From assembly GCF_000208865.1 (NCBI RefSeq), contig NC_018387.1, positions 62,001 through 126,000 on the forward strand: a DNA stretch of 64,000 nucleotides, written 5' to 3'. Numbering within the stretch: the first letter of the stretch is position 1; every line of letters begins with the position of its first letter. The translations under genes were made by a program, and so were the position numbers. This document shows positions 49,575 through 64,000 of the stretch, one piece after another. Source of the stretch: Neospora caninum Liverpool. Lineage: Eukaryota > Apicomplexa > Conoidasida > Eucoccidiorida > Sarcocystidae. The notes below the pieces were generated by a model. The model saw nothing but the letters and a program-made list of their open reading frames with translations, did no database searches and was not told the DNA's origin.

Positions 49575-50140
49575 CTTGCGTTCCCCGTCTCCTACTCTCC
49601 GTGAAGGTGTCGGAGTTGTTTTCGCACAGAACAGACGAAGCCGAATCCCACGATACACTGCAGCTGTCGAGGACTGCACAGCGGCGCCATCTCGAAATGT
49701 AGATCACGACTGCGGGGGGCCGCCAACTGGTTGTTCCCAAAATCCGGCAGCGAATTCTCCAGCGACACACACGTGCCAGGGCGTTTCGTGTCTGTCGTGC
49801 ACAGTTGCCAGGTGAACTCGTAGAGGGAAATGTGGCAAGGTAGTCTGAGAGGCAGCGACACCCGAATGCAACTCTTTCTCGGCTCGCTCGCGCACCTTCT
49901 ACAGGGGAGATATCCATCGCAACTAGCTATAGTAGGTCCACTGCTTCTGAGCGTCTCTCACGCATCCATTCCCTTTCTGCGATTAGATGCTGGGAAAAAA
50001 AACAGTCCAGAGTGCACCCCTGGGCAGTCGCTAAGGATCCGTACTCCATGTGTACTCGCGAGGATTGGGTGTGCCGTCTACATAGCGCCGCTGTAAACGG
50101 AGAGAATGGAGACGCGTGAAGCGAACCGGGAAAGCGCGGA

Positions 50141-50224
50141 TACGGAGCCGGTGCGGAGGAAAACGCGGATACGGAGCCGGTGCGGAGGAAAACGCGGATA
50201 CGGAGCCGGTGCGGAGGAAAACGC
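50141..50224 (+). repeat. 29-bp minisatellite, three units (copy 1)
   Basis: The unit begins CGCGGATACGGAGCCGGTG and is 29 bases long. Three copies are present here, and two are present at the equivalent place in the right-hand segment (56870-56924). This accounts exactly for the 29-base shift between the two segments (6727 to 6698). Confidence 0.9.
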
Positions 50225-51197
50225 GTGTAGGGCGTCGAGGCACATTCTTTGAATGGGCTATGTGAGGCTTTTCCAAGCTTCCCTCGGGGTATCCTTTCTG
50301 ATGCGGCGATGCCTCGAGTCGAACTGCGGCATGTGTTTTTCGGCGACGGTTAAGATTTTGCACACACAGTCGTTTCTAATGGCTAGACAAAAGTCGCACA
50401 CGCATAGCTCTTCACCATAGCTGACAACGCACACAAGGCTGGGGGCTCAAAAACCAAGCCTGCCGGGTGTCGGGCTTCATTTCATTTCCGTCCTGAAGCC
50501 TCTGCTTTCTGCGTTCGACGTGCCTGTGAGGAATGAAGCTTGCGAGGGACACGGGCACGCACACACCCTCTCTGCGACTCAACTCCGCGTTCGATCCCGC
50601 GTTCTTCGGGTTAGAGCTCGGAGCGGCTAGGTTCTGGGCCCGTGGGCGTCTCAGGAAAACCACCTGTTTGAGTCGACGCATGAGAGCCCTCCGGCGCCCG
50701 TATTTCCACGAACTCAAACTGCGTTTAGAAATATCTTTTCTTCCTCCGTTTGGCGGAGCTCGCGGGGCTCGCCAGCCGGAAATCTATTGTGCGCATGCAC
50801 GCTTAACACAGCCAAGCCCCGGGACCGTCCGTAGCCGACATTCTGTTTCTTTCTCAGCTTCACACTTGCGGCTTTTTCAACTTTCACTCATCTTGTCTTT
50901 CTCTTCAGCCAGCGGATCCCGTCCTTTGCTTGCTCTCGCTCGGGAACCACGGGTGTTCCCGTTTCTCCCCTCTGTTGAAAAGCTGCAACTTCTCGAGTCG
51001 CTCTCGTGTCTCTCTGTCTCTGTTTTCTCTCCCCCGTCTCCCACCGCATGCTCGCTCCAGCTCACTTAGTGTTCTCTAGACACGATATTCACCTTGTGGA
51101 TCCAGAGTCCGTGATGCATGCGTTTTTCAACCTCCACGTTGAGGTTCTCTTCTCGCGAGAAACACGCGCCACGCAGTGACTTCCCAGGGTGGACGAG

Positions 51198-52373
51198 ATG
51201 GCTGCGCGGGTGTCTTCTTGTTGCTCACCTTCCTCGAGCGTCGTTTCTCCTCTTCGGCGCAGCTTAGAAGAAGCTGCCGCGGTGGCGAAGACACGAGGGA
51301 TCCACTGCGGTGGCCCTGTCCCCCCGCGGTCGCACGCCCGGCCTCCGACGTTTCTTCCACACGCCCAACGAGGGCCTGAACTGCCTGCGAACCAACGGCG
51401 CCTGCCTCTTGCTGAGGCGCAGTGGTGGACTCAGCGAATGTCTGATTTCTTGCGCGGAGAAGCGCCTCACTTCAGCTCAACGAAGGCAACAAGTTCCACC
51501 AGACACGTTAATGCAAGGTCGCCTCGTCTTTCCGCAGCCGAAGGGGCATGCAAACAATCCCCCGCAGCTGTTCTCGTGTCCAGACACGTATCCACTCCGA
51601 TCGAGCTACCCTTCGTGCACTCAAACAGGCGGTTTCTCTCGCCTTCTCCCTCCGCCTCGTCCTCGTTTCCGTACTCATCTTCGAGTCCAGGTTCTGCCGC
51701 TGCCTCTACCTCTGTCTCACGCTCTGCTTCCCTTGTCACCGCCTCTTTACGGCCCTCTGTGTTCTCGTCTGCGTCGCTCTCTTTCTTGCATCCTTCGATA
51801 TCGCCTTTCGCCAAATCTCGCGCTTGTCTGCCCCTCTCGGCTCGTCACACTTCGCTGGGCGCGAACCTCGCTCACAAAGCCGCCCTCGTGCCGCAAGGGG
51901 GGTGTCTAGACAGCCAAAGTGTGGGAAGGCGGTCGTATTCGGGAGAACCCCGCATCCGAAACAAAAACAGCCGCCATACGTCAGAGTGGATTAAAAGGCA
52001 AATCACCGACAGATATGTCCTTCGGGCGCAAGAGGTAGGCAAAAACCTCTTTTCTTTTGACGGTTTATCGGCCCTCCATTCGGGATGCAGGATGTGTCAC
52101 AGTGGTTCCCCTGTCCCTCTGGAGCCACCAGTATCTTCACCTCGCCAGTAGGACCGTTGCGGGATCGAATCGCAAAAACTGGTGAATTGCCGTGTTGCCT
52201 CTTTCTTTCCCTTCCTCACTTAAACGGCATCGGGACTGCCTCCGTGTCTCCGCTTTCGCGCGCACAGTTTTCACTTTTTTTCTTTCTCATGACATCCTCG
52301 AGGCGTCACCGACGCCTCAAGTTGAATTGCGGCATGCTGCATGCGAGCCATGTTCCATTACATATACATATAT

Positions 52374-52416
<43 letters not shown>

Positions 52417-54141
52417 TATATGTTCTTGACCCGGTTCTTGTGGGTCTGCCGTGTCTTTTTATCTCTGTACATTTTTGCTCCTACGTACTCACATCTGAAG
52501 AGTAGTTATTTGCGTGGAATAAAATGCGGTGCGGTGCCTATCCGATAAGACTGTCAGTGGAGCTTCTGATTGGAAAGCGTCCTGCAACCATGCACGCGTT
52601 TGTTTGCCACCTTTACGCTCTCAAGAGAACGACTTCAGATTGCAGTATCTGCTCATCTGATCTATCACTCCTCTCAATCAACAAGCATATACGTACGCAT
52701 GCATATATATATATATATACATGTAGATATGTGTGTATACGTGTGTATGCATGTGTTCATGTTTGTGCGTGTATGCATGTGTGCATGTCGGTAGGTGTCT
52801 GTGTGCAGTTGGAAGTTTATTTGTGTGAGTTCGGATGGCGGGTTTTTTGTAGCGGAACCTTCGCAGTCGCGCGGCGTTCAAACTGGAGCAGCTGGATGAT
52901 GAGTTTTTGTTTTTTCGGAAGAACCAAGTCGTCGTCGATCTCGGAGCGTACCCTGGAGGCTGGAGTCAGGTTGCTCTGGACCGCATTCGCGCTGGCGGGG
53001 GAGAAGGAAGAGTCGTTGCGGTTGACCCTGTCGCCATGGATCCCGTAAGAGGTTCACCACAAAGATCGCCTCCTCAGCAGGAGCTCGTGGGTTTCCTGTC
53101 CCTCACTTTCTCATTTCGTCTTTCTGTGCCTCGTTCGCCTTTTCTACCTTTCTCTTCCCTCCCCTGCCCTCACGTCTCTGTCTCCTTCTCTTGCGATGCG
53201 TTCGTGGTGCTCCTCCGCTCTGTCGCGTTCTCTCCTGTGTCCTCGCGCTCTCTCCTGTGTCCTCGCGCCCTCGCTCTCTTCTTTCCGGGTTGTCGTGGCT
53301 CGTCCCTTTGTGTTGTTTCTCATCTGTTCCTTGTTCTGAAATGATTTTCCTGGAACGCGTCCACGGCCCATGAAGGGGGACGAACACCCGGAGAGAACTG
53401 CCAGGTGGATCACCTTGATTCTTCCGGAAATGCATCTCTTGCTCCCCGCCCCCCTGCGTGCCTCGTTTCCTTTCCATTTCCTTTCTTTCCTTTCACTTCC
53501 TTTCTTTCCTTTCATTTCCTTTCTTTCTTTTCTTCCCTTTCTTTTCTTTCTTTTTGTTCCTCCCGTAGCTCCCGCACCACACGTTCATCCAGGGCAGCGT
53601 CGGCCAAGCAGGAACGCTGCAGGCGCTCCTCGAGGGGTTGGGCGAGTCGAAGGCAGACGTCGTCCTCAGCGACATGGCGCCTGCATGCATCGGGGTGAAG
53701 CAGGATGATCACCTGAACTGCGCCGAGCTTTGTCTGCACGCGTCCGACCTCATGGAGCAGGTGAGCTGCGAGACGAAATCAAGAGGTGGGCAGAATAGTG
53801 AAACACACTTGGTAGCAGACGATGCACGAGTCGGGGGAGAAACTGAAATAGGGGACCTTGCTTCATGGACATGGAGAGCACGTGCCGCGGCCCCATCCAG
53901 AGCACTGCGGATCTTCTCGGGAGCGTGGTCCGGCGATGTCTCCGACTTTCCTGGCGTTTTCTCGGTCGAACGTACCCGACAGAAGCGCGTTGCTTTCGAG
54001 ATCCCCAAAGGCATGCAGACAGGCTGTCCGCCTGTTGTACCCCGTCAGGTGTTGAAGCTGGGAGGAACGTTCGTGACGAAAATGTTTATGGGCAGCGAGA
54101 CGAACAACTTCAAAATCTATCTGCGTACGCGGTCAAAAGGA
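51198..54141 (+). CDS. FtsJ/RrmJ-family rRNA 2'-O-methyltransferase, copy 1 (truncated by gap)
   Basis: Exons 51198-52034, 52853-53044, 53569-53760 and 54049 onward to the gap are all in phase. The first exon encodes about 279 residues that are Ser/Arg/Pro-rich and poor in acid at the start ([20 protein letters not shown]), which suits a mitochondrial or apicoplast presequence. It ends with [18 protein letters not shown]. The methyltransferase fold follows: [15 protein letters not shown] (catalytic Lys), [16 protein letters not shown] (SAM-binding motif I), VLSDMAPA (catalytic Asp) and GGTFVTKMF (second catalytic Lys). The E. coli relative methylates U2552 of 23S rRNA; the mitochondrial relative is MRM2. 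The final exon with the catalytic Glu would lie beyond the gap. At 54064-54069 the codons read GGA GGA, so this copy lacks the stop found in copies 2 and 3. The last bases before the gap contain a one-base deletion relative to copy 3. Confidence 0.8.
52373..52422. repeat. (TA)n microsatellite (copy 1)
   Basis: It lies in intron 1 of FtsJ copy 1. The matching run in copy 3 (59066-59105) is shorter, and together with a second run near 52705 explains the 16-base offset change between copies. Confidence 0.9.
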
Positions 54142-54241
54142 NNNNNNNNNNNNNNNNNNNNNNNNNNNNNNNNNNNNNNNNNNNNNNNNNNNNNNNNNNN
54201 NNNNNNNNNNNNNNNNNNNNNNNNNNNNNNNNNNNNNNNNN
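54142..54241. other. Assembly gap of 100 N
   Basis: Exactly 100 N, the usual placeholder for a gap of unknown size. It interrupts exon 4 of FtsJ copy 1. Confidence 1.
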
Positions 54242-55376
54242 TTTTTCGGAGGACCCAGTGGTTGTGGATCTCGAGGGTAACCTGGAGGCTGGAGTCAGGT
54301 GCTTTGGACGCATTTCCCCTGCGGGGGAGAAGAAAGTCTTCGTTGACCTGTCGCCATGATCCGTAGAGGTCACACAAAAGATCGCTCCTCAGCAGGAGCT
54401 CGTGGATTCCTGTCCCTCACTTTCTCATTTCGTCTTTCTGTGCTCGTTTCGCCTTCTACCTTCTCTTCCCTCCCCTGCCCTCAGGTCTCTGTCTCCTTCT
54501 CTGCGATGCGTTCGTGGTGCTCCTCCGCTCTGTCGCGTCTTCTCCTGTGTCCTCGCGCTCTCTCCTGTGTCCTCGCGCCCTCGCTCTCTTCTTTCCGGGT
54601 TGTCGTGGCTCGTCCCTTTGTGTTGTTTCTCATCTGTTCCTTGTTCTGAAATGATTTTCCTGGAACGCGTCCACGGCCCATGAAGGGGGACGAACACCCG
54701 GAGAGAACTGCCAGGTGGATCACCTTGATTCTTCCGGAAATGCATCTCTTGCTCCCCGCCCCCCTGCGTGCCTCGTTTCCTTTCCATTTCCTTTCTTTCC
54801 TTTCACTTCCTTTCTTTCCTTTCATTTCCTTTCTTTCTTTTCTTCCCTTTCTTTTCTTTCTTTTTGTTCCTCCCGTAGCTCCCGCACCACACGTTCATCC
54901 AGGGCAGCGTCGGCCAAGCAGGAACGCTGCAGGCGCTCCTCGAGGGGTTGGGCGAGTCGAAGGCAGACGTCGTCCTCAGCGACATGGCGCCTGCATGCAT
55001 CGGGGTGAAGCAGGATGATCACCTGAACTGCGCCGAGCTTTGTCTGCACGCGTCCGACCTCATGGAGCAGGTGAGCTGCGAGACGAAATCAAGAGGTGGG
55101 CAGAATAGTGAAACACACTTGGTAGCAGACGATGCACGAGTCGGGGGAGAAACTGAAATAGGGGACCTTGCTTCATGGACATGGAGAGCACGTGCCGCGG
55201 CCCCATCCAGAGCACTGCGGGTCTTCTCGGGAGCGTGGTCCGGCGATGTCTCCGACTTTCCTGGCGTTTTCTCGGTCGAACGTACCCGACAGAAGCGCGT
55301 TGCTTTCGAGATCCCCAAAGGCATGCAGACAGGCTGTCCGCCTGTTGTACCCCGTCAGGTGTTGAAGCTGGGATGA
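54242..55376 (+). pseudogene. FtsJ-family methyltransferase fragment, copy 2
   Basis: Only part of exon 2 (to about 54360), exon 3 (54879-55070) and part of exon 4 (55359 onward) are present. The exon 2 part is frame-broken: single-base losses destroy motif I and its GT donor context. Exon 3 is intact and encodes the VLSDMAPA block. Exon 4 meets an in-frame TGA at 55374-55376, the same base change as in copy 3, and stops at the second gap. The concentration of indels beside the gap suggests poor end-of-contig base calls rather than biological decay, so 'pseudogene' describes the assembled sequence only. Confidence 0.6.
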
Positions 55377-55431
55377 ACGTTCGTGACGAAAATGTTTATG
55401 GGCAGCGAGACGAACAACTTCAAAATCTATC
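54242..55431 (+). repeat. Duplicated segment, copy 2 (fragment between gaps)
   Basis: It corresponds to about 52909-54117 of copy 1 and 59591-60803 of copy 3. The left 300 bases carry many single-base deletions and substitutions; after about 54550 it becomes virtually identical to copy 3, including the bases where copy 3 differs from copy 1. Confidence 0.9.
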
Positions 55432-55531
55432 NNNNNNNNNNNNNNNNNNNNNNNNNNNNNNNNNNNNNNNNNNNNNNNNNNNNNNNNNNNNNNNNNNNNN
55501 NNNNNNNNNNNNNNNNNNNNNNNNNNNNNNN
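55432..55531. other. Assembly gap of 100 N
   Basis: A second run of exactly 100 N, 1190 bases after the first gap. It truncates FtsJ copy 2 in exon 4. Confidence 1.
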
Positions 55532-56377
55532 CGAGGTCCGTGCACTTCGTGTCGCGCAATGTTTAAACCCCGGGGACGCGTGCAAAAATCATGTCGGGGA
55601 GGAAGGATGCTTTCGCCTGGAGCATTTTTGCCGAATTTCGCGTCTCGTGTGCCCGTGGGGACATGCCGGACTATCAGAAACCGGATAGATTTTTGTGTAT
55701 GAAGAGGCTCGAGTGTAACGGTAGTACTATCAAGCCTCTTTTTTCAAATAGATTTCAAGGGAATCATTGACATTCAACCTCGCTGCTACAGGAGAGAGTC
55801 GCTTCGCTTGCAAGGCAGCTCGCAATGCGTGAGTGTAACACGAGCAGCGTTCGAAAGGACACTCACGGTGAGTCCCTTCGTCTAAAGTATGGGAGACCAC
55901 ATTTTCCCGATAGTGTTTTCGTGCATTTGCGATATCTGTCTTCGCGCGAAAACAGTGACAAAGCGAGAGAGAAATCACGGGATACGCCTCGCGGCTCTCT
56001 CTCCCCGAACCTTTGACAAACACATGCGATATATGACAGAAACGTGTTGGCACGACCAGCTAGGGAAACACGTTCACCGGGCTTCCTGCGGCTGCCTCCA
56101 CGCATTTCTCCCACAGAAAAAGCATTGCACAGAAGAGCGAACGTTGCAACCTGTCCCAGGGAGTGTAAGTGCACCTCAGCCTGGCCCATTTGGCCAAGTC
56201 TACTTGTCGAAACTAGCCGCACAACCTACGACCTTTTGCCATCGCGCGCACAAATAAACTATACATGGAAGGGCACGCGCGCGGTAAAGAGAATGCTCCA
56301 AAAGCACGCAGACGCCCACTTCCCCCAGAGTCTCGCGGGGCATACTCCGGTTCTTCCTGGCGCTTTACCGGGACTGC
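55532..56377. other. Unique spacer before FtsJ copy 3
   Basis: 846 bases with no counterpart that I can see beside copy 1. No gene is supported in it. Its junction with the duplicated segment is at 56378. Confidence 0.6.
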
Positions 56378-59300
56378 CGATACACTGCAGCTGTCGAGGA
56401 CTGCACAGCGGCGCCATCTCGAAATGTAGATCACGACTGCGGGGGGCCGCCAACTGGTTGTTCCCAAAATCCGGCAGCGAATTCTCCAGCGACACACACG
56501 TGCCAGGGCGTTTCGTGTCTGTCGTGCACAGTTGCCAGGTGAACTCGTAGAGGGAAATGTGGCAAGGTAGTCTGAGAGGCAGCGACACCCGAATGCAACT
56601 CTTTCTCGGCTCGCTCGCGCACCTTCTACAGGGGAGATATCCATCGCAACTAGCTATAGTAGGTCCACTGCTTCTGAGCGTCTCTCACGCATCCATTCCC
56701 TTTCTGCGATTAGATGCTGGGAAAAAAAACAGTCCAGAGTGCACCCCTGGGCAGTCGCTAAGGATCCGTACTCCATGTGTACTCGCGAGGATTGGGTGTG
56801 CCGTCTACATAGCGCCGCTGCAAACGGAGAGAATGGAGACGCGTGAAGCGAACCGGGAAAGCGCGGATACGGAGCCGGTGCGGAGGAAAACGCGGATACG
56901 GAGCCGGTGCGGAGGAAAACGCGTGTAGGGCGTCGAGGCACATTCTTTGAATGGGCTATGTGAGGCTTTTCCAAGCTTCCCTCGGGGTATCCTTTCTGAT
57001 GCGGCGATGCCTCGAGTCGAACTGCGGCATGTGTTTTTCGGCGACGGTTAAGATTTTGCACACACAGTCGTTTCTTATGGCTAGACAAAAGTCGCACACG
57101 CATAGCTCTTCACCATAGCTGACAACGCACACAAGGCTGGGGGCTCAAAAACCAAGCCTGCCGGGTGTCGGGCTTCATTTCATTTCCGTCCTGAAGCCTC
57201 TGCTTTCTGCGTTCGACGTGCCTGTGAGGAATGAAGCTTGCGAGGGACACGGGCACGCACACACCCTCTCTGCGACTCAACTCCGCGTTCGATCCCGCGT
57301 TCTTCGGGTTAGAGCTCGGAGCGGCTAGGTTCTGGGCCCGTGGGCGTCTCAGGAAAACCACCTGTTTGAGTCGACGCATGAGAGCCCTCCGGCGCCCGTA
57401 TTTCCACGAACTCAAACTGCGTTTAGAAATATCTTTTCTTCCTCCGTTTGGCGGAGCTCGCGGGGCTCGCCAGCCGGAAATCTATTGTGCGCATGCACGC
57501 TTAACACAGCCAAGCCCCGGGACCGTCCGTAGCCGACATTCTGTTTCTTTCTCAGCTTCACACTTGCGGCTTTTTCAACTTTCACTCATCTTGTCTTTCT
57601 CTTCAGCCAGCGGATCCCGTCCTTTGCTTGCTCTCGCTCGGGAACCACGGGTGTTCCCGTTTCTCCCCTCTGTTGAAAAGCTGCAACTTCTCGAGTCGCT
57701 CTCGTGTCTCTCTGTCTCTGTTTTCTCTCCCCCGTCTCCCACCGCATGCTCGCTCCAGCTCACTTAGTGTTCTCTAGACACGATATTCACCTTGTGGATC
57801 CAGAGTCCGTGATGCATGCGTTTTTCAACCTCCACGTTGAGGTTCTCTTCTCGCGAGAAACACGCGCCACGCAGTGACTTCCCAGGGTGGACGAGATGGC
57901 TGCGCGGGTGTCTTCTTGTTGCTCACCTTCCTCGAGCGTCGTTTCTCCTCTTCGGCGCAGCTTAGAAGAAGCTGCCGCGGTGGCGAAGACACGAGGGATC
58001 CACTGCGGTGGCCCTGTCCCCCCGCGGTCGCACGCCCGGCCTCCGACGTTTCTTCCACACGCCCAACGAGGGCCTGAACTGCCTGCGAACCAACGGCGCC
58101 TGCCTCTTGCTGAGGCGCATTGGTGGACTCAGCGAATGTCTGATTTCTTGCGCGGAGAAGCGCCTCACTTCAGCTCAACGAAGGCAACAAGTTCCACCAG
58201 ACACGTTAATGCAAGGTCGCCTCGTCTTTCCGCAGCCGAAGGGGCATGCAAACAATCCCCCGCAGCTGTCCTCGTGTCCAGACACGTATCCACTCCGATC
58301 GAGCTACCCTTCGTGCACTCAAACAGGCGGTTTCTCTCGCCTTCTCCCTCCGCCTCGTCCTCGTTTCCGTACTCATCTTCGAGTCCAGGTTCTGCCGCTG
58401 CCTCTACCTCTGTCTCACGCTCTGCTTCCCTTGTCACCGCCTCTTTACGGCCCTCTGTGTTCTCGTCTGCGTCGCTCTCTTTCTTGCATCCTTCGATATC
58501 GCCTTTCGCCAAATCTCGCGCTTGTCTGCCCCTCTCGGCTCGTCACACTTCGCTGGGCGCGAACCTCGCTCACAAAGCCGCCCTCGTGCCGCAAGGGGGG
58601 TGTCTAGACAGCCAAAGTGTGGGAAGGCGGTCGTATTCGGGAGAACCCCGCATCCGAAACAAAAACAGCCGCCATACGTCAGAGTGGATTAAAAGGCAAA
58701 TCACCGACAGATATGTCCTTCGGGCGCAAGAGGTAGGCAAAAACCTCTTTTCTTTTGACGGTTTATCGGCCCTCCATTCGGGATGCAGGATGTGTCACAG
58801 TGGTTCCCCTGTCCCTCTGGAGCCACCAGTATCTTCATCTCGCCAGTAGGACCGTTGCGGGATCGAATCGCAAAAACTGGTGAATTGCCGTGTTGCCTCT
58901 TTCTTTCCCTTCCTCACTTAAACGGCATCGGGACTGCCTCCGTGTCTCCGCTTTCGTGCGCACAGTTTTCACTTTTTTTCTTCCTCATGACATCCTCGAG
59001 GCGTCACCGACGCCTCAAGTTGAATTGCGGCATGCTGCATGCGAGCCATGTTCCATTACATATACATATATACAAATATATATATATATATATACATATA
59101 TATATGTTCTTGACCCGGTTCTTGTGGGTCTGCCGTGTCTTTTTATCTCTGTACATTTTTGCTCCTACGTACTCACATCTGAAGAGTAGTTATTTGCGTG
59201 GAATAAAATGCGGTGCGGTGCCTATCCGATAAGACTGTCAGTGGAGCTTCTGATTGGAAAGCGTCCTGCAACCATGCACGCGTTTGTTTGCCACCTTTAC

Positions 59301-60823
59301 GCTCTCAAGAGAACGACTTCAGACTGCAGTATCTGCTCATCTGATCTATCACTCCTCTCAATCAACAAGCATATACGTACGCATGCACATATATATATAT
59401 ACATGTAGATATGTGTGTATACGTGTGTATGCATGTGTTCATGTTTGTGCGTGTATGCATGTGTGCATGTCGGTAGGTGTCTGTGTGCAGTTGGAAGTTT
59501 ATTTGTGTGAGTTCGGATGGCGGGTTTTTTGTAGCGGAACCTTCGCAGTCGCGCGGCGTTCAAACTGGAGCAGCTGGATGATGAGTTTTTGTTTTTTCGG
59601 AAGAACCAAGTCGTCGTCGATCTCGGAGCGTACCCTGGAGGCTGGAGTCAGGTTGCTCTGGACCGCATTCGCGCTGGCGGGGGAGAAGGAAGAGTCGTTG
59701 CGGTTGACCCTGTCGCCATGGATCCCGTAAGAGGTTCACCACAAAGATCGCCTCCTCAGCAGGAGCTCGTGGGTTTCCTGTCCCTCACTTTCTCATTTCG
59801 TCTTTCTGTGCCTCGTTCGCCTTTTCTACCTTTCTCTTCCCTCCCCTGCCCTCACGTCTCTGTCTCCTTCTCTTGCGATGCGTTCGTGGTGCTCCTCCGC
59901 TCTGTCGCGTTCTCTCCTGTGTCCTCGCGCTCTCTCCTGTGTCCTCGCGCCCTCGCTCTCTTCTTTCCGGGTTGTCGTGGCTCGTCCCTTTGTGTTGTTT
60001 CTCATCTGTTCCTTGTTCTGAAATGATTTTCCTGGAACGCGTCCACGGCCCATGAAGGGGGACGAACACCCGGAGAGAACTGCCAGGTGGATCACCTTGA
60101 TTCTTCCGGAAATGCATCTCTTGCTCCCCGCCCCCCTGCGTGCCTCGTTTCCTTTCCATTTCCTTTCTTTCCTTTCACTTCCTTTCTTTCCTTTCATTTC
60201 CTTTCTTTCTTTTCTTCCCTTTCTTTTCTTTCTTTTTGTTCCTCCCGTAGCTCCCGCACCACACGTTCATCCAGGGCAGCGTCGGCCAAGCAGGAACGCT
60301 GCAGGCGCTCCTCGAGGGGTTGGGCGAGTCGAAGGCAGACGTCGTCCTCAGCGACATGGCGCCTGCATGCATCGGGGTGAAGCAGGATGATCACCTGAAC
60401 TGCGCCGAGCTTTGTCTGCACGCGTCCGACCTCATGGAGCAGGTGAGCTGCGAGACGAAATCAAGAGGTGGGCAGAATAGTGAAACACACTTGGTAGCAG
60501 ACGATGCACGAGTCGGGGGAGAAACTGAAATAGGGGACCTTGCTTCATGGACATGGAGAGCACGTGCCGCGGCCCCATCCAGAGCACTGCGGGTCTTCTC
60601 GGGAGCGTGGTCCGGCGATGTCTCCGACTTTCCTGGCGTTTTCTCGGTCGAACGTACCCGACAGAAGCGCGTTGCTTTCGAGATCCCCAAAGGCATGCAG
60701 ACAGGCTGTCCGCCTGTTGTACCCCGTCAGGTGTTGAAGCTGGGATGAACGTTCGTGACGAAAATGTTTATGGGCAGCGAGACGAACAACTTCAAAATCT
60801 ATCTGCGTACGCGGTTCAAAAGA
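56378..60823 (+). repeat. Duplicated segment, copy 3 (carries FtsJ gene)
   Basis: It is nearly identical to 49651-54141. Substitutions I can place include 51422 G against 58120 T (CAG to CAT, Gln to His) and 51572 T against 58270 C (silent). Others are 53909 A against G here and the G-to-T change that creates TGA at 60746. It continues without a gap into the last FtsJ exons. Confidence 0.95.
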
Positions 60824-61636
60824 GTCTCCTCTGCAAAGCCCAGGTACGCGCGGCAGAGCTCCCCAACTGTGCGGTAGAAACCGCTCGCGAAAACCGGAAA
60901 AGAGAGGGGAAGAGGGCCCAGAACGCGTGCGCGAACCGGTTCGTCCGCGGCGCCCTGACGCCTGGAAACTCCGCCCTTAGCCGGGAGAAGAGGAGAACAA
61001 AAAGGAAACGTGATTCGACGTTCTGCGCAGGCCGACGGTGCCGCTGCTCCCGATTGCCAGTCGGGAGCAGCGACGGCGGACAGAGCCATCGTTCTAGGAG
61101 ACTTGCGAGGGATCTGTCCTACGGAAGAGTGCTGGACAAAAGCGACAGAAGCATGGGAAGACCTGGAGCACCGCTGGGGATCCACGCAAAAAGGCAGGTT
61201 TTGCGTTGACGAGAGCGATACGATGTGCGGGTTTGTCCGGATCGGAGATGCACAGCGAGACAGCACGTGCGGTCTTCGTAGAAAAGCGATTTGAGGCTTC
61301 TCCGGTGAACCAGCAGCTACTGGCGACGCAAGCTTCCTGTCGCCGCAAGCTTCCTGTCGCCGCAGTTCCGGAGCTCTTCCCCTGAAAGGTGTGCGGAGGC
61401 AAGGGGAGGAATCGCTAAAAACAGCGGAGGAAGAAAGCAAAGACTGAAATGGACCTTTCCTCTCCCTGTTTTCTGCATGTGTCTTTTTACCGACCATTTT
61501 GTAATTTGCTCGCAGAGCGTGTCGCCCAGAATCGCGAGAAATGTATTTCGTCTGCCAACACTTTTTGGGTCGAGAACGTCTCGCCGAGGAAGTCCAGCTC
61601 AAAGGCTGCTTCACCGGTAAAGAAGGCTATCTGTGA
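57896..61636 (+). CDS. FtsJ/RrmJ-family rRNA 2'-O-methyltransferase, copy 3, with in-frame TGA
   Basis: Five exons in phase: 57896-58732, 59535-59726, 60251-60442, 60731-60843 and 61516-61636, which would encode 484 residues if read through. The start is the ATG of GACGAGATGG. Exons 1-3 match copy 1. The last exon supplies [15 protein letters not shown], which aligns with the 'SREVYIVA' end of RrmJ and holds the fourth catalytic residue (Glu); the product ends [11 protein letters not shown]. With FKL, SDMAP and VTKMF this completes the family K-D-K-E tetrad. However, exon 4 reads GTG TTG AAG CTG GGA TGA: the second Gly codon is a stop at 60746-60748. The product would end before the second Lys and the Glu and should be inactive. 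A sequencing error is possible, but copy 2 shows the same base. Confidence 0.75.
59066..59105. repeat. (TA)n microsatellite (copy 3)
   Basis: The shorter counterpart of the run at 52373-52422, in intron 1 of FtsJ copy 3. Confidence 0.9.
61042..61072. repeat. Perfect 12-bp inverted repeat
   Basis: CGCTGCTCCCGA at 61042-61053 and its reverse complement at 61061-61072 flank a seven-base loop. It lies in the intron between exons 4 and 5 of FtsJ copy 3. The stem is GC-rich and would form a stable RNA hairpin. Confidence 0.85.
61331..61366 (+). repeat. 17-bp direct repeat
   Basis: GCAAGCTTCCTGTCGCC occurs twice in tandem in the intron between exons 4 and 5 of FtsJ copy 3. Confidence 0.8.
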
Positions 61637-64000
61637 CGTATCACCGGAGACAGAGAACCCCGTCGCGGCGAAACGACATCTGGCCGATATCAGAAGCGTG
61701 AGAAGCGTTCTCATGAAGAGGCAAGGCCGGTTCACTGTGACCTCTTCTCGCTCTAAATCGTCTTCCTCGTCTTCGTGCATGGGACAGAAAGACGCGAGAG
61801 TGAACTGGCGGCATCCGCGGGGCGAAGCTGGTGGAACCGGGAAGCGCAGGTTCACTCCTGTTTCACTTCCGTCGCCGCGAAAAAGCGCTTGGGGGTTCAT
61901 TTGTACGGTCTCGTTTTTTGTGAGAAAAACGTACAGAAAAGTAGGCCACAGCTGTGTTTCGGGCTACAATGCCCGGGACGAGAGGAATGCCTCTCTGCAG
62001 GTCGGTCTCGCTTCGGCCACACAGTACGCGATGAATCAACAGATAGACCTGCAGCGTCTGTAGTGCAGCGTCTCACTGTTTCGCTAGCAAGAGCCAGTCT
62101 CTCGGGCTGCAGTTCGGAAGGAGCCGAGGATCCATGGCGGTCGGCTCCCTGTATCCGACTGTGAGAGGAAATAAAACTGCGAGTTTGGAACGCGGCGGTG
62201 CGCTACGGCCCGCGCGTCCGGTGTATCTTTCTGCAATCCTAGGGGGGACTACTGGGTTGGGCGGCACCATGGATTCGGCAGAAAAAGAAAATTCCGAGCC
62301 GGGCGGTGGTGCCCTCTCCGTGGCAGAACAGTGGCAAGGTGACCCGCGGTGCATCAATACAAGAGAGAACAATCTGTAGATGCCTTTCTTGCAACACGTT
62401 CCTTCGCTACCGCTCTCTCGTTGGGCGAAGTCTAGGCGAGAAAAAAACTCTGTGTGCTCCCTCTGTGGTTCCTGGCTAGAGAGCACAGGCTCTGTTGCAT
62501 CGTGAGAACGACGGCTTACCGGCTGATTGCTTGAGGCCCCCCCCAAGTTTCATCCGCCGACCTGGAGCAATGGAAGGCTCTCAGATGACTGAAAGGAAAC
62601 TCTGCGCATTCGTCCACATTTTTGCCGCCACAAGACGCACCCCACTAACCGGTCCTCGGCCACGTCTTGCTGGAAAGACTCTTTCACAGAAGTGTGGGGA
62701 CAGACTACAAGTCACCCCGTGGCATGGTTTCCAACTCTCGCAAGTCTCGGTCGTAACCGCGCCAACGCCCTTGCTGAACGGAGCAACCGCAGTGCACGAC
62801 ACTGCATGTCCATCGCATTTTTTTTTTACATCGAACCAGCTTGCTAGCTGCGTCCGACTCTGAGATGCAGCGACGGGAAGCTTTTCCGGTGGACGCGTCT
62901 CTGATTGTATGTGCCTAGTACAGCGCCGGGGGGGCTTTGGATGGCCTCGAGACTCTTTAAGTAGTATGGGGTGTTCGAGAGAGCGGCATGGACGAGTACT
63001 TCCCCTGTCGCTTCCCGCAACCTCTCTTGCAGGTCAGCATTCGCAGATATCGTCGCCGCTACTGTGTTTCGCTAGCAACCGGATGGGAATGTGGAACTGA
63101 GTGGCAAGTGTTTTTAGCTGCTATTGTTGTGAAAGCAGACTGAGAAATTCCTGGCGTACTGCAGTTAGATCTGCACTACGTTGTTAGACCGACGTTTCGC
63201 TTCGTAGCTCTCAAGGAAGCGGGTGCAGTGTAGTGTGGGGGCCGCGTGCCGCCACGCACGGGAATACGTTTGCATAGCTTGGATTCACCCGTTCAGAATA
63301 TTTCTTGCTCAGTCTGAATTACTGGATCCTACGCGTGTCGGACCTCCTCTTTGTGATCTTTTGCCTTTCGCTACAGCGAACGTCCGCGCTCCTTGGGGGG
63401 TCCGTTGCTTCTATCGGCATCATAGGTAGCTGCTTCGCGCGTGTCCGTCTGTCACTCATCTCGCGTTGCACGATTCGAGAGTCCGGCGTGCGTCTGCATC
63501 TCAGTTAGGTGAGGATCGGGAACGCACTACCTGCGGCGTGCAGAGCATATTTTCAAGAAGGCCAGTCGCCTCTCTCTCTGCCGTTCCAAGCTAGTTTCGT
63601 CGCGCAGTTCCTGGTGGTCCGATTCTCGGTCAGTGAGCGGCGCTCCTAGACTATCCGCCATTGCTTTTCGAGCAAACTCCTCTTGCATAGAGAGCTCAGG
63701 GCGCTGAACTGATGAAATCGCGATTCTCCATCAGAAGACCGCGCCCTGTGTCTGTTGAAACTGCGGAACGGCAGACTCGAGAGGTGAAGGCGTGCCTGGC
63801 TCCTAGGTGGAATTCATGGACGAACGCTCCAACCGAGTGCTGCTGTGTCCATTGGAAGCTGTCCGTGGTGGCCTGAGTTGCGAGATCACTCCCGCAGCCG
63901 CAGGTGTGCCCAGAGGGTTCGATTGCCCGACGCAGAGCTTCGGTTTGTGCCGAGAGATGTTCTCGCTGCGCCTGTCTTTTTGCGGGGCTTTGTGCCGCTT
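61637..64000. other. Right-hand flank, no supported gene
   Basis: After the FtsJ stop I see only short open frames. One candidate first exon starts at 62271 (MDSAEKENSEPGGGALSVAE) and ends at a GTGACC donor at about 62339. I could not find a phase-matched partner exon, so it is not called. A (T)9 run is at about 62820. The final kilobase may be a 5' leader of a gene beyond the window. Confidence 0.35.

What the first reader, a model, noticed from the sequence alone, without database searches (positions are those of the whole stretch)
49651..61636. FtsJ methyltransferase locus present three times around two N gaps
A segment of about 4.5 kb appears as a long left copy, a 1.2 kb fragment and a long right copy, interrupted by two 100-N gaps. 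Left and right copies differ at a few bases, by one 29-bp repeat unit and by microsatellite length, so they are not the same reads used twice. This fits a recent tandem duplication in a haploid genome, or two haplotypes wrongly placed in series.
Basis: seen in the sequence. Interest (0 to 1): 0.8.

Follow-up and report, generated by a model that had tools for sequence, protein, structure and literature searches.

The report
Half-assembled tandem duplication in Neospora
A stretch of about 10.7 kb in the cattle parasite Neospora caninum is probably present twice in a row, but the reference assembly shows only pieces of the first copy; this may hide a second copy of a host-interaction gene (MAF1) and has probably produced a faulty public model of an RNA-methylating enzyme.

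Summary
The window lies in the Neospora caninum Liverpool reference. This is the signature of a direct tandem duplication, unit 10,709 bp: flank|X, X-end|X-start and X|flank all meet at one 14-bp word. Copy 1 is only partly assembled; about 5.4 kb of its middle is absent. The 1.2-kb fragment is no good evidence for a third copy: all its differences from copy 2 fall in its first 300 bp, and the other 890 bp are identical. The unit carries an RlmE/MRM2-like FtsJ methyltransferase and a homologue of Toxoplasma MAF1. Copy 2 of FtsJ has an in-frame stop shortly before the presumed catalytic lysine; the public N. caninum protein equals copy 2 with a 17-residue skip over that stop, while copy 1 has no stop there. 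A second MAF1 gene in the unassembled middle is inferred, not seen. Tandem duplication supported; 'three times' and 'haplotypes in series' not. No reads could be examined; read depth or long reads must confirm.

The parts
49651..54141 (+). Copy 1 (left), assembled first part: start of the 10.7-kb unit through most of FtsJ exon 4; cut by the first gap
49651..49664 (+). 14-bp word CGATACACTGCAGC at the left flank|unit boundary
54142..54241 (.). 100-N gap
54242..55431 (+). 1,190-bp fragment; last 890 bp identical to copy 2, first 300 bp error-rich; most likely a redundant small contig
55432..55531 (.). 100-N gap; the stretch from the first gap to here stands where about 5,418 bp of copy 1 would be expected
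55532..56377 (+). Copy 1, last 846 bp of the unit; identical to G000:C3:128241-129086 (window scale 66241-67086)
56378..56391 (+). 14-bp word at the unit-end|unit-start junction between copy 1 and copy 2 (gap-free contig)
56378..64000 (+). Copy 2 (right); gap-free, continues to window scale 67086 (C3:129086), then the 14-bp word and the right flank
51198..54141 (+). FtsJ (RlmE/MRM2-like) gene, copy 1: exons 51198-52034, 52853-53044, 53569-53760, 54049-(gap); frame open through the segment with the presumed catalytic lysine
57896..61636 (+). FtsJ gene, copy 2: exons 57896-58732, 59535-59726, 60251-60442, 60731-60843, 61516-61636; in-frame TGA at 60746-60748 in exon 4
60782..60843 (+). Exon as used by the public protein model (P0004): acceptor 51 bp further downstream, leaving out 17 codons and the stop among them
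63807..64000 (+). 5' end of the open frame that holds the MAF1 homologue (NCLIV_004730); the annotated gene lies just beyond the window end

Best explanation
Neospora caninum Liverpool carries a direct tandem duplication of a 10,709-bp unit, formed between two identical 14-bp words. The unit holds an RlmE/MRM2-like FtsJ methyltransferase gene and a MAF1 homologue. Shown in the assembly: both outer boundaries, the internal junction, and divergence of the two copies over 4.4 kb. Inferred: the assembler merged the middle of copy 1 (about 5.4 kb, with the 3' end of FtsJ and MAF1) into copy 2, and a small redundant contig of copy 2 was placed in the gap. After the duplication copy 2 of FtsJ gained a stop codon ahead of the catalytic lysine; copy 1 presumably supplies the function, though its last exon is not assembled.
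For: Unit-end|unit-start junction in a gap-free contig, 846 of 846 bases identical to the other unit end, with the same 14-bp word at all three boundaries; the word occurs in the window only at its two boundaries there, against 0.01 expected. The 1,000 bases outside each boundary occur once each in the genome. Left and right copies differ at 10 substitutions outside microsatellites (7 transitions, 3 transversions) plus a 29-bp unit, unlike the same reads used twice. Copy 1 has the 17-residue segment that 9 of 9 other relatives aligned also have without a gap. The middle, probed over 60860-66240 (5,381 of 5,418 bp), occurs once in the 14 contigs, as does the MAF1 homologue.
Against: No read depth or spanning reads could be examined. 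The two unit ends are identical over 846 bp where 1.9 differences would be expected at the rate seen elsewhere (probability 0.15). The missing middle of copy 1 has not been seen anywhere. As I recall it, the literature calls the N. caninum MAF1 locus unduplicated.
Confidence: 0.75

Rival explanations
1. Three or more tandem copies: the 1.2-kb fragment is the only visible trace of a further copy of the copy-2 type, and the rest collapsed into copy 2.
For: The fragment has the copy-2 base at both informative sites. Toxoplasma has about 4-10 copies of its MAF1 locus by coverage (PMC4004538, passages).
Against: The fragment is identical to copy 2 for 890 bp and its differences sit only at one end, like poor read quality. 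Supercontigs were placed by PROmer alignment to T. gondii (PMC3310773, passages), so its position may carry little information; whether the gaps here lie within or between supercontigs is unknown.
Confidence: 0.12
2. Single-copy locus: the left end of contig C is a false or chimeric join of an end-of-unit read onto the start of the unit, and the two versions come from variation within the sequenced culture.
For: The overhang is about one Sanger read; zero differences over it. One of three other gaps in a 200-kb control shows a 113-column overlap at 86.7% that was not joined, so contig ends in this assembly can be poor.
Against: The join would have to fall exactly on a 14-bp word that also marks the true left boundary; contig C would need to lack reads that reach the left flank; 10 substitutions plus a repeat-unit change over 4.4 kb are many for a haploid clone. 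It is not a dovetail overlap: contig C starts with sequence absent from the end of contig A.
Confidence: 0.08
3. Two haplotypes of one locus wrongly placed in series.
For: Copies are 98.7% alike with substitutions and repeat-length changes.
Against: Tachyzoites are haploid (established knowledge, not tested); two haplotypes in series do not give a unit-end|unit-start junction.
Confidence: 0.03
4. A single chromosomal copy plus an extrachromosomal circle of the unit, which would give the same three junctions.
For: The set of junctions is the same as for a tandem duplication.
Against: A circle that differs at 10 sites from the chromosome would need long independent persistence; contig C runs without a gap from the junction through the unit into the right flank.
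Confidence: 0.02

Closest known systems
MAF1 locus of Toxoplasma gondii (chromosome II, tandem MAF1a/MAF1b array)
   Same: Homologous gene: two open stretches searched apart match TgMAF1 structures (E 3e-73 and 8e-26); tandem duplication of the locus
   Different: Two units supported here, against about 4-10 copies in T. gondii by coverage (PMC4004538, passages); the Neospora unit also carries the FtsJ gene, and whether the Toxoplasma unit does was not tested; that C3 corresponds to chromosome II was not established here
RlmE/RrmJ (FtsJ) and mitochondrial MRM2 2'-O-methyltransferases
   Same: PF01728 in exons 2 and 3 of copy 1; the T. gondii orthologue aligns with structures of FTSJ (1eiz) and mitochondrial rRNA methyltransferase 2 (7o9k)
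   Different: Below the curated cut-offs of the bacterial RrmJ/RlmE models; copy 2 is interrupted before the presumed catalytic lysine and the public N. caninum model leaves out 17 residues there
Tandemly expanded secretory loci of tissue-cyst coccidia
   Same: Tandem amplification that includes a secreted-effector gene (PMC4729833, passages)
   Different: Mostly hidden by the assembly; a survey of apicomplexan duplicates warns that tandem duplications may be missed through assembly errors (PMC4053351, passages; its gene tables were not seen)

Membership tests
Direct tandem segmental duplication | Adjacent copies in the same orientation | tested here: met
Direct tandem segmental duplication | Novel unit-end|unit-start junction in continuous sequence | tested here: met
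   55532-56391 equals 66241-67100, 860 of 860 with the shared 14-mer; no N between 55532 and 79000 on the window scale
Direct tandem segmental duplication | Single-copy flank on each outer side | tested here: met
   identity ends at 49651 and 67100; 1,000 bases outside each boundary occur once each in G000
Direct tandem segmental duplication | Both units complete in the assembly | tested here: not met
   about 5,418 bp of copy 1 are absent
Direct tandem segmental duplication | Doubled read depth or reads that span the junction | not testable with these tools
   no reads held
Missed contig overlap (assembly artefact) | End of the left contig equals start of the right contig | tested here: not met
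   contig C starts with 846 bp absent from contig A; a likely missed overlap at the gap C3:384223-384322 looks different
RlmE/MRM2-like FtsJ methyltransferase, copy 1 | FtsJ domain and the segment with the presumed catalytic lysine | tested here: met
   which lysine is catalytic is recalled from E. coli RrmJ
RlmE/MRM2-like FtsJ methyltransferase, copy 1 | Complete open frame to the C-terminus | tested here: inconclusive
   end of exon 4 and the last exon lie in the unassembled part
RlmE/MRM2-like FtsJ methyltransferase, copy 2 | Uninterrupted catalytic domain | tested here: not met
   in-frame TGA at 60746-60748
MAF1 | Sequence homology over the MAF1 C-terminal domain | tested here: met
   6bxw, 6bxr, 6bxs; two open stretches searched apart
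MAF1 | Host mitochondrial association | not testable with these tools
   Neospora vacuoles are reported not to show it (PMC10732070, passage)

The most novel reading that the evidence does not exclude
N. caninum, taken (as I recall) as the unduplicated outgroup for MAF1 evolution, has its own tandem duplication of the MAF1 locus with the neighbouring FtsJ gene as passenger, one FtsJ copy already decaying; the locus is then prone to duplicate repeatedly and independently in coccidia.
Probability: 0.55. Interest if true: 0.6.

Novelty: new member of a known kind. Interest (0 to 1): 0.45.

Why it matters
If confirmed, the reference undercounts a host-interaction locus in a species used for comparison with Toxoplasma, and the public N. 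caninum RlmE/MRM2-like protein is a mis-modelled product of an interrupted copy. It is also a base-resolved, young duplication in which one copy of a passenger housekeeping gene is interrupted while the other has no stop as far as it is assembled.

Tried and rejected
Haplotypes in series: rejected because of the junction. Missed contig overlap: rejected because contig C does not start with the end of contig A. Fragment as an independent third copy: not supported (error profile), not excluded. Copy differences as sequencing error: rejected for the long copies (7 of 10 substitutions outside microsatellites are transitions, spread over 4.4 kb, plus a whole 29-bp unit); thought likely for the first 300 bp of the fragment and for the one base close to the end of contig A. 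Dating the duplication was not attempted for want of a rate.

Literature: the ten paper searches were seen as listings; passages were seen of PMC10469931, PMC4053351, PMC3310773 (abstract in 18), PMC5444011, PMC10732070, PMC4729833, PMC4004538 and PMC10790690. None of what I saw describes this duplication or its breakpoint in N. caninum. No supplementary tables could be read. Three papers asked for by DOI are not held: the 2021 long-read reassembly, the 2014 expanded-locus paper and the 2016 MAF1 paper; what I say of their content is recalled (the titles of the first and third were seen in reference lists). Against my recall that N. [quoted passage not shown] PMC10469931 says the earlier NcLiv reference is incorrectly assembled (passage). 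The duplication may therefore already be visible in the newer assembly, which I could not check.

Full report
What was checked. The window is C3:62001-126000 of a 57,546,354-bp, 14-contig genome. A protein encoded just past the window end is listed as NCLIV_004730 of Neospora caninum Liverpool on a contig of 2,170,133 bp, the length of C3, so the source is that reference. The paper on it says (passages, PMC3310773) that it is a Sanger assembly of about 8-fold depth made with PHRAP, with supercontigs placed along T. gondii chromosomes by PROmer.

The repeats. Left copy 49651-54139 and right copy 56378-60822 match at 98.7%; the 1,190-bp piece 54242-55431 lies between two 100-N gaps. The copies differ by 11 substitutions, one of them at a microsatellite edge, a 29-bp unit, two AT-repeat lengths and one base close to the left contig's end. 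Of the 10 substitutions outside microsatellites, 7 are transitions and 3 transversions; 3 lie in exons of the FtsJ gene (Gln/His, one synonymous, Gly/stop) and 7 do not.

The small piece. Per 100 bp its differences from the right copy are 20, 11, 9 and then zero in the nine remaining bins; against the left copy they are the same plus one at each of two sites where it carries the right copy's base. That is the profile of poor sequence at one end of a small contig of the right copy. It does not show a third copy, and does not exclude one.

The junction. The gap-free contig after the second gap begins with 846 bp identical to C3:128241-129086, beyond the window; with the next 14 bases the match is 860 of 860. 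One search gave 12 matches: the query's own place, this one, 43 bp at the start of the left copy, and nine short ones of 42-48 bp at 87-93% elsewhere in the genome. On the window scale the unit therefore runs from 56378 to 67086, 10,709 bp. At the left boundary (49651), at the internal junction (56378) and at the right boundary (67087) stands the same word, CGATACACTGCAGC, followed by unit start, unit start and right flank. In the window the word is found only at 49651 and 56378, against 0.01 expected. The 1,000 bases outside each boundary occur once each in the genome. This is the breakpoint pattern of a direct tandem duplication between short identical words. Copy 1 is represented by its first 4.5 kb and last 0.85 kb; about 5,418 bp between them are missing. 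Of that stretch 5,381 bp (60860-66240) were searched in two pieces, and each was found once, in copy 2. The search tool warns that it skips simple repeats and scores only its best candidates.

Control. In 200 kb of the same contig (C3:200001-400000) there are three gaps, all 100 N. Two show no match across the gap and one shows a 113-column overlap of the abutting ends at 86.7%, probably a join missed because of poor ends. No direct repeat of 300 bp or more was found there. The locus here is unlike that overlap, because the right contig does not start with the left contig's end.

Genes in the unit. The first is an FtsJ-family methyltransferase. Exons 2 and 3 of copy 1 hit PF01728; exons 1 and 4 hit nothing in Pfam. 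The T. gondii orthologue (P0005) aligns to solved structures named putative ribosomal RNA methyltransferase (2plw), rRNA methyltransferase 2, mitochondrial (7o9k) and FTSJ (1eiz), and to the RrmJ/RlmE models below their curated cut-offs. In copy 2 exon 4 reads VLKLG and then TGA at 60746-60748; copy 1 has a glycine codon there and stays open to the end of its contig. The stop comes five residues before the lysine of FVTK, which aligns with the FVVK lysine of FTSJ and which I recall as part of the catalytic tetrad of E. coli RrmJ; the last exon, with SREMY, follows. The public protein (P0004) equals, residue for residue, copy 2 spliced with an acceptor 51 bp downstream (60782), which leaves out 17 codons, the stop among them. 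The corresponding segment is present without a gap in 9 of 9 other proteins aligned, though not identical in all; 7 of them bear names of coccidia (Toxoplasma, Besnoitia, Cystoisospora, Cyclospora, three Eimeria) and 2 bear none. I aligned 10 of the 120 hits listed (of 1,757 found), P0004 included. The public model is thus most simply an annotation artefact of an interrupted copy; real splicing at 60782 would give a protein without that lysine.

The second gene starts just past the window. Two open stretches, searched apart, match solved structures of mitochondrial association factor 1: the first with E 3e-73 (6bxw, chain residues 5-182), the second with E 8e-26 (6bxs, 187-271; 185-269 in 6bxw). 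The first has 48-49% identity to two Toxoplasma proteins, one of them named mitochondrial association factor 1. It has no Pfam family above its cut-off. In T. gondii the MAF1 locus is on chromosome II and tandemly repeated, with about 6-10 copies in one strain and 4-5 in two others by coverage (PMC4004538, passages). By recall, a 2016 Genetics paper reported the locus as duplicated in T. gondii and Hammondia but not in N. caninum; it is not held. A 2017 paper speaks of paralogs in all three (PMC5444011, passage), which goes partly against that recall. If the duplication here is complete, N. caninum Liverpool has two MAF1 genes, one of them in the unassembled middle of copy 1. That gene has not been seen; an internal deletion in copy 1 would remove it.

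How it most likely arose. A duplication between two 14-bp words about 10.7 kb apart (microhomology-mediated repair or replication slippage; inferred) gave two units. They have since diverged by about 0.2% over the part that can be compared. The assembler then probably merged the near-identical middles. The identity of the two unit ends over 846 bp is a little more than expected (1.9 differences expected, probability of none 0.15) and could reflect chance, gene conversion or, on the rival view, the same reads. The small contig may have been placed by its similarity to the T. gondii FtsJ gene (inferred); whether the two gaps lie within or between supercontigs is unknown.

What would change my mind. 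A false join of one read is the main rival to a real duplication: the overhang is about one read long and 14 is, as I recall, PHRAP's default word length. Against it stand the divergence of two versions in a haploid clone and the coincidence of the word with the true left boundary. The small contig shares the stop allele with copy 2, but as it may derive from the same copy this is not independent support. Reads decide it.

Noticed in passing
C3:126140-127351 (window scale 64140-65351), beyond the window: The public model of the MAF1 homologue (P0001) starts downstream of an in-frame Met that precedes a hydrophobic stretch, and its last part comes from the same open frame beyond the stretch that matches MAF1; a further open stretch at 65426-65716 matches the C-terminal part of MAF1 structures but is not in the model.
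   Followed up: partly
60731-60843: The public N. caninum RlmE/FtsJ protein avoids an in-frame stop by a shifted splice acceptor and lacks a 17-residue segment that 9 of 9 aligned relatives have.
   Followed up: yes
C3:384223-384322 (locus L038): A 100-N gap whose abutting ends overlap over 113 columns at 86.7%: probably a missed join of poor contig ends.
   Followed up: no
50129-50225: 29-bp direct repeat upstream of the FtsJ gene, three units in copy 1 and two in copy 2.
   Followed up: no
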